Shown here: positions 29,301-63,987 of the stretch, in pieces
How positions within the stretch are numbered: the first letter of the stretch is position 1
Layout: the number at the start of each line of letters is the position of its first letter
Assembly: GCF_032118995.1 (NCBI RefSeq)
Contig: NC_092656.1
Coordinates: forward strand, 11,909,761 to 11,973,760
DNA: 64,000 bases
Source: Asterias amurensis
Lineage: Eukaryota; Echinodermata; Asteroidea; Forcipulatida; Asteriidae
Direction: 5' to 3'
Program-made: the position numbers and the translations under genes
The notes under the pieces: model-generated
What the model was told of the DNA's origin: nothing
The model's database searches: none
What the model saw: only the letters and a program-made list of their open reading frames with translations

Positions 29301-32300
29301 TATGAAGTAATTTTCGGGCAGATTGATTTCGAAACCTCAGATTTAGAATTTGAGGTCTCGAAATCAATGATCTAATCGCTCACAACATTTCGTGACAAGG
29401 GGTTTATTCTTTTCATTATTATCTTGCAACGTTGACGACCAATTGAGCTCAAATTTTCACAGGTTGGTTATTTTGTGCATATGTTGAGATACACCAAGTG
29501 AGAAGACTGGTCTTTGACAATTACCAATAGTGTCCATTGTCTTTAAGCAAAGAATCAGTGTTTGTGGAAGCAGTGAACTCTGAGCTAACATTGTTCGTCA
29601 AGTGTATTTCATAGGTTAGTGGGGAAATATTTTTTTTGCTTGTTTGCGTGTGTGCTGCTTGTAACTCGAGGCATCTTCGCCACAGCTAGCGCACAAGTTT
29701 GGCGCAAGCTTGTACATCAAGCTGAGAATGGTGATCGTAAGTGCAGAATTCGGTGGTAAGCAGAGCCATGAAGTTGGGCCCCGATGTCTTGCATTTTTCC
29801 GCCATTAGAAAATTGTTTTTTTTTAGTTCAATAAATCAGTTCAAGTTTTCTTTTTGGTAGCTTGTCTTTTTTCTCCAGGTTTACATGGTAAATTACATAA
29901 ACATGTGAAAACAATGCCATGCCAAGACCAGGGGTTATGAGATTGTTTTCATTCCTGTGTGTGCATTAGTGAAAATTTTTCAAAAAATGCGTTCAGGGCC
30001 CCACTGGAAATCGGAAAAGGGCACGTCTTGCATATCAAATACCCGGAGATTTACATCAAAATGTTCCCTTTGAAATCTGACATTTGTACATTGTACATTA
30101 CATGTAATATTCAGTGCTGTCATGCTCGTAGGGGGTTTCGAAAGCATGTGTTGTAAAATAAATGGAAATTTTAGAATACACCAGTTTGGATGTCTGTAAC
30201 AGGATACAAGTGCCTCAGGGCACTATATTGGGACCTTTTTTTTTTTCTTTTTTTTTTTTGGGTGGGGTAAAATTACTGCAGGAACAAAAGAAGGAATTCT
30301 GCTGCTATGTTATTTGATTAATTACCTCCCGAGGTAAAGTTTTGATGTTTACCACGGGATCAGCTGCAAGTTGTCCATCTTATTTCGGACCAAGATTCAT
30401 TGTCCACTTGACCCAATCATCAAGGTTGTTTGACCATGGAGGTGGCAGGGATAGAGAGCACACCTTGGTGCTAGGGCAGAAGAATGATGATTCATAGTGT
30501 TGATCAAACTATCCCTGTGTGTGTGTGTGTTGTATGAATCATACTGGATAGTAGGGTCATATCTTTGGATTCCGTGACCATTTTTTTGCTACCTTTTTTT
30601 CTCGATGGATTTGGCTTCAGGAACCATTTAAAAGGAAAATTAGCTCCTATGAACCTCTGAAATGTGATAGGAACTTTTTTTATTGCGCAATATTCAAAAT
30701 GGCCGCCGACGCCATCTTGAAAAACATAAATTGTAATAGCTCTGGCACCAGATGACCTAGATGGACAAAGGAGATGTCCTTTTCCACTATATCTGGCATG
30801 ACAAATACACTGGAGTGGTTATTGTTAGGTTTAGGGACCATCTTGACCTCTAAATCCAATATGGCCGCCGGACGCCATCTTGAAAACCATAACTTTTGTT
30901 AGCTCTGGCACCAGATGACCTAGACGGACAAAGGAGATATCCTTTTCCACTATATCTGGCATGGCAAATACACTGGAGTGGTTATTGTAAGGTTTGGGGA
31001 CCATCTTGACCTCGAAATCCAATATGGCCGCCGGATGGCATCTTAAAAAACATAACTTTCATTAGCTATCGCACCAGATGACCTAGATAGACAAAAGATA
31101 TGTCATTTTCCACTAAATTTGGCATTACAAGTCTACTGGAACGGTTATTGTAGAGTGTGGGGATCATCCTAAACCCCAAATCCAAGATGGCCGCTGTCAC
31201 CATCTTACAAATTATGAATTGTAATAGCTCAGGCACAAGAAGAGCTGTACAAACAAATATGGTGTAATTGTCCACTATTTCTGGCATTACAACTGATTTT
31301 AACTGATTCAAGCACTCTCGATACATACGGGCAAAGAACTCGCCGTGTAATCCTTGCATTGGCCCAGGGCCAAAGATGACCAAGTGAGACCTAAACCAGA
31401 AGAACAGACTGTGCCAGGGTTTTCAGGGCTTCAGCCAAAACCAGAGGAAAGTCGAGCAATTTCATACGACTTACCCCAACCCACTTGATAAGACGATTTA
31501 TTTGATGTGATGTGTAAACTTGGAAAGCCAATCAAAGAGAAAAAAAATGCCTTTCGCAATAATTGTTGGTGACCATCCTGTAAACTTTCCACAAAATCAT
31601 ACCTTTCACGGGACCTTTCCACATAAATATGTCACTCATCTACGCTATATTCAAGAGGTTTAAAGGGATCTGGCATCTTAGATGTTTTGGTTGCAGCGGG
31701 TGTCATTGCAGATGGTTCTGTTATTCGGGCCCTTCGTGGGAAAAGAGCGGGTTCGATGCCTGTATAACTCTACTACGAGACTGTTCCGTCATGCCAGGAC
31801 AAAAACACATGACTTGAAGCGTATTTGCTAAGCGTATTGAGGCTTTCTTGCTAAGCTCCGACTTTCAAACAGTGTTCAAGAACTTTCAGATTCACATGAT
31901 GAACTTAAGTACAATGCTGATCTGATTGACCTACATGATTGTAGTTGACACTCTCTTCAAGGACTTTGAGGGTTCCCAACAAGCAGAATACTGGATTTCC
32001 TTCATGGAAATGGTGGAGATTCTGACTCAAAACAAGCAACTGGACAGAGTTCAAGTCTTCACTCAACCTCATGCTTCCATGGATGTGAATCTATGACAAT
32101 GACACGTATGGTCGGCATCTTCCCGATTTTACGAGTTCAAGTCTTCACTCAACCTCATGCTTCCATGGATGTGAATCTATGACAATGACACGTATGGTCG
32201 GCATCTTCTCGATTTTACGGCAGTACTTGATACCCTTCCTGAAGACCAGGCTGCATTCAAGGAATATGGTATGTTGCGCACTCAATGATTGGAAAACCAT

Positions 32301-35300
32301 TCATGTGTCGCCCTTGACATTTGGATAGAGCCAACAATGAATAAGGGCTCTAAGCTGAAATCTAAGCTGAAATCTGGATGACTGGCAATTCCAAACAATG
32401 AAAAGCAACTCCTTTCAAAGACTCGAAATAGCAAGCATCAGAACTTTTCAACTCGAGAATTGCAGTAAGGATGGAGGAAATGGAGTGTAAAGCTTTGGCC
32501 TCTGTTCTCTGGCTGGTCGAAACGAGTGGTGCCCAATCTTGAAGACATCCTGCAGCATCGTGTTGTGCCTTGCAATCTTCAACGTCAATGGAACCATGCG
32601 TAAGACACAGAAAAGCAAGCTCCCGCAAAAATCTTACTTCGATTGCCATTCCAGAGCCTGATGTATTCACATAGATCATCGATATGGGCCTCATATGGCG
32701 CTTGACCATTCCTACCACTGAAGACAAACTGCCAATCAGCAATGTTTTCATGAAATCAGAAGATTTCCATGCTCTCCTGAGCACACGTGAGAACAAGGCA
32801 ATATCCGCCTTCAAGTTTTCCTCCAAGAAGCTTTCCTGAGAACAGCAGAGTCAACCAGTATTGAGATCATCTACGTGTAGTAGGCAGCACTGCTAAGAAT
32901 CTCGCAGGCAGTCTGATGCCAGAGCTTAATATTGTGCCCATGCAGAGGCAGACGCTGCCATATTCACCATTTACATTGTGCTTTGTTCTTAAGGCTACTC
33001 AGAAGCAGTCATTTTTGATACTGAGAACACTGACAACTTTGTACAAGTGGCATATAATTCTCAGAATACATCAGGGCTCATGTGTGTGTACAACGCAAAC
33101 ATCAGCTAATCAAGCCACTTCCATCATACCACTTTATGTTCTTTGGGTGTGACAATAACTCTGGTTTCTATGGATCAATCGGGTTGAAAAGTCCAAAGAG
33201 GCACAAGACCTGCTAGCAGTATTAAACAGCTCCCTGTGACACAAAAGATTATCAGCAATTTGGAGCAATTTGTCATACGTGTATGGCGATTGTAAAAGCA
33301 AGACCCTGGGAGAAGTCCGAGCTGCCAAGTGAAGAGTGCAGGAAAAAGAGCACTATTTGGCTTGTGCCTGATTTGGACAGTCTCTGTCCACACTTGGAGC
33401 GTGCATACTTACTAAGTTAAGAAGTCACCCCCTCACCAATAGGCCATGGGTTGCATCTTGCAAATGGCTTGTGTCTGCCAATCCGTTATACTAAGCCCCC
33501 CATTCCCTGATCCATGTCCCTACCAACAAACCCGCAGACACATGACAACAGTGATAGCGGCAGCGTAAGTGAAAAGTGAGATAGGTTGTGATAGTGAAGC
33601 TGCTATGATGTGAATCTTGGATTTAGAGGTAAGGATGACTCCAGAACTATGAAAAACATTTAAAAATTAGTTTGTAATGCCAGAAATAGTGGGAAATGAC
33701 ACACTATTTGTTCTTATAGCTCTTCTTGTGCCACAGCTTTCACATTTTAAATTTTGAAGATGGCGTTCGGTGGCCATATTGGATTTCGAGGTCAAGATGG
33801 TCCCTTATAATTAACACTCCAGTGTATTTGCCATGCCAGATCTAGTGGAAAAGGATATCTCCTTTTGTCCTTCTAGGTCATCTCGTGCCAGAGCTAATGA
33901 AAGTTATGTTTTTCAAGATGGCGTCGGCGGCCATATTGGATTTCGAGGTCAAGATGGTCCCCAAACCTTACAATAACCACTTCAGTGTATTTGCCATGGC
34001 CCATGCCAGATATAGTGGAAAAGGATATCTCTTTGTCCGTCTATATAGGTCATCTTTGTGCCAGAGCTAATGAAAGTTATGCTTTTCAAGATGGCTTCCG
34101 GCGGCCATATTGGATTTAGAGGTCAAGATGGTCCCCAAACCTTACAATTACCACTCCAGTGTATTTGTCATGCCAGATATAGTGGAAAAGGACATCTCCT
34201 TTGTCCGTCTAGGTCATCTGGTGCCAGAGCTATTACAATTTATGTTTTCAAGATGGCGTCCGGCGGCCATATTGGATTTAGAGGTCAAGATGGCCCCCAA
34301 ACCTTACAATTACCACTCCAGTGTATTTGTTATGTCAGATATAGTGGAAAAGGACATTTCCTTTGTCCATCTAGGTCATCTGGTGCCAGAGCTATTACAA
34401 TTTATGTTTTTCAAGATGGCGTCGACGGCCATTTTGAATATTGCGCAATAAAAAAAGTTCCTATCACATTTCAGAGGTTCATAGGAGCTAATTTTCCTTT
34501 TAAATGGTTCCTGAAGTCAAATCCATCGAGAAAAAAAGGTAGCAAAAAAATGGTCACGGAATCCAAAGATATGACCCTACTAGGAGGTACAATTTAATTG
34601 TACAAGGGAAGCTCCACACACACAGAGTCCCATTATGATGCATGTCACTGTGTAAGATGATACAGTGATGGTCCAGTAAGGTGTTTCGGTCTTACAATAA
34701 TCAAGTTTTTATGCTTCAATTCCCTCGTCTTTGTTTTTATACAAAATATGATAAATAAGGAAATTTAAAAGACGGGCATTTATTTGTAAGCTGCTTTGTA
34801 GCAGAAATGATTACAGTACTTCTAAGGATTCTGCATCTAGGAAAATTAAGCGGGGGACCAGGCGTCTGGTAACCTTCTGCTGGTACCAGTAGGCCTACAC
34901 GTTCTTTATGATTTTGTTTGTGCTTCAGCTAGATTGTAAAATCGTTTGTGCGTAAGCAACTAATGAACTGGACCCAAGTTATAGATGAAGGGTACACAAA
35001 TGTACATGATGTATGTACACATAATAATTTGTTGGCCCAAATTTTCTGGTTTTATCCAATTTATTTTGGTTTGCTTCGTATGAGCTTCAGCTAGATTGTA
35101 AAATCGTTTGTGCGTAAGCAACTAATGAAGTGGACCCAAGTTATAGATGAAGGGTACACAAATGTACGATGTATGTACACATAATAATTTGTTGGCCAAA
35201 TTTTCTGGTTTTATCCAATTTATTTTGGTTTGCGTGTATGAGTTTTTTTTTTGTGGAATCCATATTAATGTCAGGGCTGTGAAACTATGTACATTATTTA

Positions 35301-44069: not shown

Positions 44070-44645
44070 CCATATCTTGTTAGTTGATGTCATATCGTGT
44101 TGGTTGATGTCATGTTTGTTTGAGGTCATATCATGAGCGTTGCGGTCATGTGATGTCATAACAAGATATGATCTAAGTACAACCTTGTGTATCATCATGA
44201 TAAGATACGACCTTGTGCATGATTATGAAAAGATACAACCTTGTGTATCATCATGATAAGATATGACCTTGTGTATCATCATGACAAGATACAACCTAGT
44301 GTATAATTATGACAAGATACAGCTTTGTGTATCATCATGACAATACACGATCTTGTGCATCATGACAAGATACGACCTTGTGCATCATGAGAAGATATGA
44401 CCTTGTGCATAATCATGGCAAGGTTTGACCTTGTGTATCATCATGACAAGATACGACCTTGTGTATCATCATGACAAGATACGACCTTGTGTATCATCAT
44501 GACAAGATACAAACTTGTGCATCATCATGGCAAGGTTTGACCTTGTGCATCATCATTGCAAGGTTTGACTTTGTGTGTCATGGCAAGGTATGACCTTGTG
44601 TATCATCATGATAAAATATGACCTTGAGCACCATCATTACATCGA
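44070..44645 (+). repeat. Minisatellite, ~28 bp unit, in UBE2R 3' flank
   Basis: About 18-20 diverged units of the form CATCATGACAAGATACGACC followed by TTGTGTAT, with some short (~22 bp) units lacking one ATCAT. It starts about 430 bases after the UBE2R stop and ends before the AATAAA at 45072, so it is probably transcribed in the 3' UTR. Confidence 0.85.
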
Positions 44646-45071
44646 AGCAATGATCTAAAACATATTATGGACATCTTCACTTTACAAAATGTATTAGCTT
44701 GTGGAAAATCTCTTTGTTTACTTTCAACCATTCTTTACTGGAGTTGCACGACTTTTGACAGCGGTGTCGACAAGAAGAGAAAATCAAAAATCAACATCAT
44801 CATCGTCTCATGTGTGCTCCGAGTGAACTGCGGGATTACGAAGGTGTGGCACTAGATACTCACTTCAATAGGATACGTGAATACCTCAACGATATTATTT
44901 CTTGCAGTTATGGTAATTGTACGCTCTCAATCACTTATTAAGAAGACAACTCTTTGTGTTTTTGTCAACCCTTTACTTTTATCACGGATAGAGAGGTGTA
45001 TAACATTTTTGTACTAAACCTATGAAGAAGAAAAAAAATAGTAAAAACATGATTAACTGCTAATTATGCAA

Positions 45072-47369: not shown

Positions 47370-47510
47370 TATTTGGGGTTGAATAAAGACAAGAGTGGGA
47401 CTCGGAGCTACTCTGATTAATGTGCCGGCGCTCTACCAACTGAGCTATCTAGCCCTATGTTGGCGGTGTCCCTTTTTTGTCAATATCTTCGTTCGGGGGT
47501 GCGGAACACT
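47370..47510 (-). repeat. tRNA-derived SINE (family C)
   Basis: On the minus strand it reads CACCCCCGAACGAAGATATTG, GGGCTAGATAGCTCAGTTGG, TAGAGCGCCGGCAC and then a decayed B-box region and TTCAACCCC. It matches the 55150 copy over its whole length. Confidence 0.8.

Positions 47511-54884: not shown

Positions 54885-63987
<9,103 letters not shown>

What the first reader, a model, noticed from the sequence alone, without database searches (positions are those of the whole stretch)
30549..34582. 4 kb transposon whose terminal repeats are tandem 162 bp satellites
Both arms begin with the same ~150 bp sequence and then run into four (left) or five (right) tandem ~162 bp units in opposite orientation, around a 2.3 kb core. 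The terminal segments are nearly identical while the core gene is broken, which suggests recent movement driven by an intact relative elsewhere. Satellite-built arms of unequal copy number are uncommon and could be bound cooperatively by a transposase or seed satellite arrays. I cannot name the superfamily.
Basis: partly seen in the sequence, partly recalled or inferred. Interest (0 to 1): 0.75.

Follow-up and report, generated by a model that had tools for sequence, protein, structure and literature searches.

The report
Foldback-type transposon with tandem-repeat arms
This is a jumping gene that lost its own enzyme and whose two ends are built from short repeated blocks; it belongs to a family of similar copies in this animal genome, a known body plan found here on a less studied enzyme lineage.

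Summary
Window 30549-34582 is one copy of a DNA transposon family: 143-bp inverted terminal domains differing at one base, then 4 (left) and 5 (right) ~162-bp units in opposite orientation around a ~2.3-kb core with a broken gene. A 31-base end pattern finds 59 ends in the genome; 48 form 24 facing pairs, 21 of these 3.6-4.6 kb long. Of 18 independent insertion sites read, 15 have 3-bp and 1 a 4-bp target duplication (window GGA/GGA). Seven cores differ by 0-1.5% and share stops, so the gene was dead before these copies moved: they were moved in trans. Near-intact relatives in the same genome (~1,510-aa protein, related ends TAGTTGGGTCAT, 3-bp duplication with an empty site) show the source lineage. 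The inner units keep a fixed order on each arm; the number of outer units varies. Most units (143 of 197, up to 1 mismatch) carry an inverted 13-bp copy of the relative's terminal sequence, so extra transposase binding sites are the likeliest role (inferred). No free satellite array of near copies was seen. The body plan is known (Tetris, Galileo). Superfamily: AcademX-like by duplication length; nuclease not confirmed. New variant of a known kind.

The parts
30546..30548 (.). left target site duplication GGA
   Evidence: GGA|TAGTAGGG ... CCCTACTA|GGA
30549..30691 (+). left terminal domain (143 bp), begins TAGTAGGGTCATATC
   Evidence: its first 31 bases have 59 matches in the genome
30692..30853 (+). 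left unit L1 (type A)
30745..30757 (-). example of the inverted 13-bp end-like motif (GGTCATCTGGTGC on the - strand) inside a unit
   Evidence: read
30854..31016 (+). left unit L2 (type B)
31017..31179 (+). left unit L3 (type C)
31180..31292 (+). left unit L4, degenerate innermost (type E)
31366..33507 (+). broken gene remnant: pieces match residues 568-913, 1037-1128 and 1302-1477 of the ~1,510-aa protein of near-intact relatives, with stops and frame changes
   Evidence: tblastn
32047..32218 (.). 86-bp tandem duplication inside the gene remnant, shared by 7 copies
33615..33784 (-). right unit R5, degenerate innermost (type D); inner border approximate
33785..33941 (-). right unit R4 (type B)
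33942..34115 (-). right unit R3 (type B)
34116..34277 (-). right unit R2 (type A)
34278..34439 (-). right unit R1 (type A)
34440..34582 (-). right terminal domain (143 bp)
34583..34585 (.). right target site duplication GGA

Best explanation
A non-autonomous, foldback-type cut-and-paste DNA transposon. It derives from a lineage that encodes one large (~1,510 aa) protein and makes mainly 3-bp target duplications (AcademX-like). Its gene was disabled in an ancestor; copies kept spreading because an enzyme from a related element recognises the ends TAGTAGGGTCAT... in trans. Shown: element boundaries, target duplications, the family, shared lesions, near-intact relatives with related ends. Inferred: that a relative of the TAGTTGGG family (or an unseen closer one) supplies the enzyme; that the arm units work as additional binding sites (most outer units carry an inverted copy of 13 bp of the relative's terminus, and a GGCCGCC palindrome block also found twice per arm in the relative); that outer-unit number changes by unequal exchange or slippage while the inner units keep an order specific to each arm.
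For: 59 end-pattern hits, control 0; 24 facing pairs. 19 two-ended copies read: 16 with 3-bp duplications, 1 with 4 bp, 2 without; L020 and L022 share one site, so 15+1 of 18 independent sites. Seven cores 0-1.5% apart with the same stops at seven places and the same 86-bp duplication. Near-intact relatives: frames of 1177 and 1016 aa, elements C10:19060845-19067520 and C12:11006291-11012971, about 420-bp inverted repeats at 92%, duplication CTG and an empty site in the surrounding 325-bp tandem array; ends 23 of 31 identical to the window's, reached by 0 of 200,000 random sequences. Window gene pieces match that protein at E 9e-20 (3e-25 without composition correction). Unit motif twice per arm in the relative, 151 bp apart. 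13-bp end match in the unit consensus, reached by 0 of 3,000 shuffles; within 1 mismatch in 72 of 72 A, 25 of 33 B, 16 of 17 C and 10 of 10 F units.
Against: The two near-intact relatives read each carry one frame break and their ends differ from the window family at 8 of 31 bases. The 13-bp motif matches the relative's end, not the window family's own end (longest own match 7); it was noticed after the fact, is inverted, ranks only 24th of 149 stretches in conservation, and is absent from the innermost D and E units (0 of 34). L013 and L024 lack a matching duplication. Target duplications lean to T-N-A (6 of 15) and TAA/TTA (4 of 15), more than window composition gives (P 0.001 and 0.005); such a leaning recalls PIF/Harbinger. 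XPG_I does not hit the relatives, a profile of four relatives finds no nuclease in the PDB, DUF6589 is a sub-threshold Pfam hit for one relative lineage and absent for another (L074).
Confidence: 0.8

Rival explanations
1. The same transposon, but the unit arrays are passive: by-products of replication slippage and unequal exchange in long inverted repeats, with no role in movement.
For: Outer A units vary from 1 to 3 per arm; a 30-bp minisatellite of about 100 copies grew inside another copy, L020, with no evident function; arms of 2 units exist (L024 and one arm of L022).
Against: Every arm of the TAGTAGGG family that I read carries at least part of an array, including sister families with core pieces mostly 80-84% alike (L072, L073) and diverged copies (L078, L079); most lone ends were not read. 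Units are more alike by position between copies (88.6%, 3,235 pairs) than within an arm (79.3%, 347 pairs), so arrays are old and inherited. The inverted end motif exceeds shuffles.
Confidence: 0.35
2. A PIF/Harbinger-type element, or another superfamily with 3-bp duplications, rather than an AcademX-like one.
For: Harbinger elements also make 3-bp duplications (abstract of PMC2213677 in the listing); duplications lean to T-N-A, 6 of 15; AcademX membership could not be tested by sequence. I raised this from 0.15 to 0.2 after counting the T-N-A leaning.
Against: 9 of 15 duplications are not T-N-A, the window's GGA among them, and the relatives have CTG and CAC; no Pfam transposase domain in the relatives' proteins; proteins of ~1,510 and 1,544 aa, longer than I recall for Harbinger.
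Confidence: 0.2
3. A Mutator-type foldback element like Tetris or FB.
For: Same body plan: outer domain, tandem units within the inverted repeats, inner region, variable unit number.
Against: Target duplications are 3-4 bp, not the 8-10 bp given for Tetris; no MULE match in Pfam for window pieces or relatives.
Confidence: 0.03
4. Two satellite arrays that happen to flank an unrelated gene fragment, not one element.
For: Arms-only copies exist (L024, L078).
Against: 24 end pairs with common boundaries, with target duplications where read; no unit-motif hit outside element copies (93 of 93 inside).
Confidence: 0.01

Closest known systems
Tetris (Drosophila virilis foldback transposon, PMC4079207; abstract and part 1 of 2 of the Discussion read)
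   Same: Non-autonomous; outer domain plus ~220-bp tandem units inside the inverted repeats; units share a stretch (37 bp) with the outer domain; copy number varies.
   Different: 8-10 bp target duplications, assigned to Mutator; no coding partner found; large satellite arrays formed. Here mainly 3-bp duplications, near-intact relatives in the genome, no free arrays of near copies seen.
Galileo (P superfamily, PMC3573991; passages read, start of abstract in the listing)
   Same: Foldback-like; tandem units in the inverted repeats (subfamily F) vary independently in the two arms; units reported to hold secondary transposase binding sites in one form.
   Different: P superfamily by its transposase; here another protein family and 3-bp duplications.
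AcademX lineage of the Academ superfamily (one passage of PMC10045372 read; the AcademH paper itself not held)
   Same: 3-4 bp target duplications; the passage links AcademX to a nuclease, and the relatives here show a FEN1/XPG-like motif order (EADT, DTDV, TGxD, GKK; the resemblance is recalled).
   Different: No comparison with an Academ protein was possible; nuclease profile tests were negative; I found no report of tandem-unit arms in Academ in the searches (of the 26 papers I saw the listing of 20 and passages of three: PMC4298943, PMC10294476, PMC3573991).

Membership tests
Foldback-type DNA transposon | long inverted terminal repeats containing tandem units | tested here: met
Foldback-type DNA transposon | unit number variable between arms and copies | tested here: met
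   both arms of 4-6 units in 16 of the 18 two-ended copies longer than 3 kb; L020 and L022 have one arm of 3 and 2; the 867-bp L024 has 2 and 2
Cut-and-paste DNA transposon | common ends and target duplication of set length | tested here: met
   15 of 18 independent sites 3 bp, 1 of 18 4 bp, 2 of 18 none
AcademX | 3-4 bp target duplications | tested here: met
   relatives CTG and CAC (read). Not specific: Harbinger also makes 3 bp
AcademX | XPG-type nuclease domain | tested here: inconclusive
   motif order present, but the PF00867 search of the genome did not hit the relatives (6 hits elsewhere) and Pfam scans and a PDB profile search gave no nuclease
AcademX | Academ DDE/D transposase domain | tested here: inconclusive
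   only a sub-threshold DUF6589 hit in one lineage (E 0.01 and 4.8e-4), none in L074; no paper in the library names DUF6589
AcademX | clusters with Repbase Academ proteins in a tree | not testable with these tools
   no Academ reference sequences at hand
Mutator foldback (Tetris, FB) | 8-10 bp target duplications | tested here: not met
PIF/Harbinger | Harbinger-type transposase domain | tested here: inconclusive
   no Pfam transposase hit in ten window pieces or in the relatives, but these proteins match no transposase model at all, so the test is weak
PIF/Harbinger | TWA target duplications (recalled) | tested here: not met
   4 of 15 are TAA/TTA; the other 11 are not

The most novel reading that the evidence does not exclude
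Another transposase lineage (AcademX-like), beside Mutator and P, independently evolved foldback arms, and the arms are selected multi-site docking arrays: outer units re-use an ancestral terminal recognition sequence in inverted orientation, so the element kept the old binding sites in its arrays after its own extreme end had changed, and dead copies compete for enzyme by carrying more sites than the coding relatives, which have two motif copies per arm.
Probability: 0.3. Interest if true: 0.6.

Novelty: new variant of a known kind. Interest (0 to 1): 0.42.

Why it matters
According to the Tetris paper most foldback elements seem to be Mutator elements, with exceptions. Here dead copies, sister families and near-intact coding relatives with related ends lie in one genome, with enough copies to order the steps: gene dead first, then spread; inner units fixed, outer units variable. 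That makes the idea that such units are extra transposase binding sites testable, and would extend this convergence to another enzyme lineage.

Tried and rejected
Promoter and terminator scans were not run (bacterial tool, animal DNA). A Pfam scan of ten window frames gave two frames with weak hits (E 0.09-0.21), nothing meaningful. Viral collection: a 19-base end pattern had 0 hits; protein and profile of the relatives found no relative. Genome contigs: one hit, a contig filed under a mussel gill symbiont (L077), probably host DNA (inference); its frame is broken and it was not folded. Structure prediction was not used: its stated rule names window sequences and loci from other tools, not loci from the genome search or the fetch from genomes. 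PDB searches: single proteins 0, 0 and 3 chance-level hits, four-member profile 9 weak non-nuclease hits. NCBIfam: none for three proteins. Rfam at gathering threshold: one tRNA. DNA folding of one unit: z -2.88, 1 of 200 shuffles as stable, not pursued. Rows dropped before counts: L011 from the core comparison (deletions); L024, L027, L028 from the unit-pair averages; L024, L027, L028, L072, L073 from the motif-by-type table. The 35-base unit pattern misses diverged arrays (L078, L079), so 'no free satellite' applies to near copies only. Mutator, Harbinger and satellite-only readings: see rivals.
Full report
Setting. The window is G000:C9:11909761-11973760 of an unnamed 491.5-Mb, 23-contig genome, animal in character (inference).

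Observation. The coordinates are right to the base. The inverted ends start TAGTAGGGTCATATCTTTGGATTCCGTGACC at 30549 and mirror at 34582. The 143-bp terminal domains differ at one base. Then come units of ~162 bp, L1-L4 on the left and R1-R5 on the right, in opposite orientation: L1/R1 95%, L1/R2 96%, L2/R4 94%; L4 and R5 are degenerate, 60-70% to the others. The core between them is ~2.3 kb.

A family. The first 151 bp gave 71 candidates, 40 of them scored, 40 matches, a lower bound. A 31-base end pattern with up to 3 mismatches gave 59 ends (28 forward, 31 reverse), control 0. They form 24 facing pairs and 11 lone ends; 21 of the 24 pairs span 3.56-4.57 kb, the others 867 bp, 6.5 kb and 14.6 kb. 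I fetched 20 places; 18 of the 20 show both ends (L027 and L028 show one), 19 two-ended copies with the window. Sixteen of 19 have a 3-bp duplication (TTT, TAT, CTA, TAA, TTA, TCA, TTT, ATG, AAA, AAG, CAT, TTA, CAT, TGA, TTA, GGA), L026 has 4 bp (TACG), L013 and L024 have none. L020 and L022 share site and flanks (98.5% alike over 4.6 kb; a segmental duplication by inference), so the independent count is 15 + 1 of 18. The 15 duplications are AT-rich (18% G+C against 38% in the window) and lean to T-N-A, 6 of 15, P 0.001.

Dead before it moved. Seven copies with a full core in one piece (window, L009, L010, L012, L013, L014, L016) differ by 0-1.5% and share stops at positions 734, 764, 811, 831, 869, 896 and 1110 of the relative's protein, 7 of 7, and an 86-bp duplication. 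Upstream of these the window's stops align differently from those of the other six. L011, close but deleted, was left out. Their sites differ; two of the seven (L009, L016) both have TTT and one (L013) has no duplication. So the gene was broken in their common ancestor and they moved in trans. L013 and L016 have identical cores. In the other copies the aligned core pieces are mostly 90-97% like the window's (L011 97-100% with deletions, L028 87% over one short piece), and L017, L018, L021 and L025 have an inner inversion.

Coding relatives. A read-through piece of the window's remnant, X at its stops, found frames of 1177 aa (C10) and 1016 aa (C12) at 46-48% identity. The C12 element runs 11006291-11012971, has about 420-bp inverted repeats at 92%, ends TAGTTGGGTCATCTGGTGCAATCCCGTGACC, and CTG on both sides; it lies in a 325-bp tandem array whose uninterrupted unit reads ...CTCAACCTGGTCG..., the empty site. 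The end pattern of this family gives 6 ends, i.e. 3 copies; the third (C10:8695266-8701252) has several stops. The protein is ~1,510 aa; the C10 copy has a stop after residue 332 of the frame and the C12 copy a frame change further on, so neither copy read is fully intact. Window gene pieces match residues 568-913, 1037-1128 and 1302-1477 at about 27-32% identity. The two end sequences agree at 23 of 31 bases; 0 of 200,000 random sequences do as well. More distant relatives (22-26% identity) have long open frames, two of them 1544 aa; one of these (L074) has ends TAGACTGGGTA and CAC on both sides.

The arrays. 197 units from 23 places were aligned. Units at the same position of different copies are 88.6% alike (3,235 pairs), at the same position of the two arms of one copy 86.4% (84 pairs), within one arm 79.3% (347 pairs), three one-ended or very short copies left out. 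Clustering at 8% distance gives strings, outer to inner: one arm A(1-2)BCE, the other A(1-3)BBD or A(2-3)FD; the window is ABCE and AABBD. L020 and L022 have one arm cut short (ABC, AL). So inner units are old and fixed for each arm, and the number of outer A units varies. Sister families L072 and L073 have arrays too (AMH/AAIJ, AAGKH/AAAGIJ). The C12 relative's arms hold the unit's starting motif twice each, 151 bp apart (E 3.7e-6 and 0.004 left; 2.7e-6 and 0.058 right), the second copies being weak: a possible starting point for tandem growth (inference).

A 13-base run GGTCATCTGGTGC of the relative's terminus lies inverted in the unit consensus; 0 of 3,000 dinucleotide shuffles reach 13, one reached 12. 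It is exact in 120, within 1 mismatch in 143 and within 2 in 144 of 197 units. By type (18 copies; within 1 mismatch): A 72/72, B 25/33, C 16/17, F 10/10, D 0/18, E 0/16. This stretch of the unit ranks 24th of 149 in conservation, above the median but not at the top. The window family's own end has no such match (7 at most). I noticed the match after seeing the data. In Galileo and Tetris, units in the arms have been read as extra transposase binding sites.

Satellite seeding. A 35-base unit pattern with up to 3 mismatches has 93 hits, control 0; 88 lie in paired elements and 5 in the one-ended copies L027, L073 and L028. It misses diverged arrays: L078 and L079 hold units it did not report. 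A different, 30-bp minisatellite has grown inside the core of L020 and L022.

What family. The body plan is foldback. The Tetris paper (abstract and part 1 of the Discussion) says that most foldback elements seem to be Mutator, with exceptions; Tetris has 8-10 bp duplications. Here they are 3-4 bp, which the passage that I could read gives for AcademX; the AcademH paper is not held. Four relatives align with invariant EADT, DTDV, TG.D and GKK motifs, in the order that I recall for FEN1/XPG nucleases, but XPG_I does not hit them, nor do PDB or Pfam searches name a nuclease. Pfam's DUF6589 is a sub-threshold hit (19.4 bits, cut-off 27) and absent in L074. I therefore say AcademX-like, not AcademX, and keep Harbinger or another 3-bp superfamily as a rival, raised from 0.15 to 0.2 because of the T-N-A leaning. 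'Academ' with 'foldback' found 0 papers; four terms around Academ, subterminal and tandem repeats listed 20 of 26 papers holding at least three of them, of which I saw passages of PMC4298943, PMC10294476 and PMC3573991.

Noticed in passing
L020 (C1:10763481-10771019) and L022 (C1:10722200-10727769): Two copies with the same flanks at the insertion (98.5% alike over 4.6 kb); both hold a 30-bp minisatellite grown inside the core, roughly 100 versus 40 copies.
   Followed up: partly
C6:1790392-1805001: End pair 14.6 kb apart with the first unit-motif hit 11 kb inside: probably another insertion near the left end. Not fetched.
   Followed up: no
L070/L071 (C12:11002500-11014200): A 325-bp tandem array (11.6 units on the left side alone) surrounds a near-intact relative and gives its empty site.
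   Followed up: yes
L078 (C7) and L079 (C11): The right flank of L078 and the left flank of L079 are the same 13 bases in reverse complement, so these two may share a site or sit in a common repeat.
   Followed up: no
L077 (NZ_CAHJWD020000426.1): A contig filed under a mussel gill symbiont encodes a broken relative of this protein family; likely host DNA in the symbiont assembly.
   Followed up: partly
window 34913-35005 and 35075-35167: A 93-bp block repeated at a spacing of 162 bp just outside the right end; the spacing equals the unit length but the sequence looks unrelated.
   Followed up: no
window 44126-44662: 28-bp tandem repeat array in two blocks.
   Followed up: no
window 57928-58518 (-): 196-aa frame that resembles the C-terminal end of LINE reverse transcriptase proteins (recalled, not tested).
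   Followed up: no
window 55193-55265: tRNA match by Rfam, 44.9 bits; part of it lies in an inverted repeat with 47415-47502, so possibly a tRNA-derived SINE.
   Followed up: no
C1:27763430, C1:27945885, C7:13474336: Three end pairs of exactly 3,561 bp sharing one mismatch in one end: a recent sister subfamily or duplicated copies. Not fetched.
   Followed up: no
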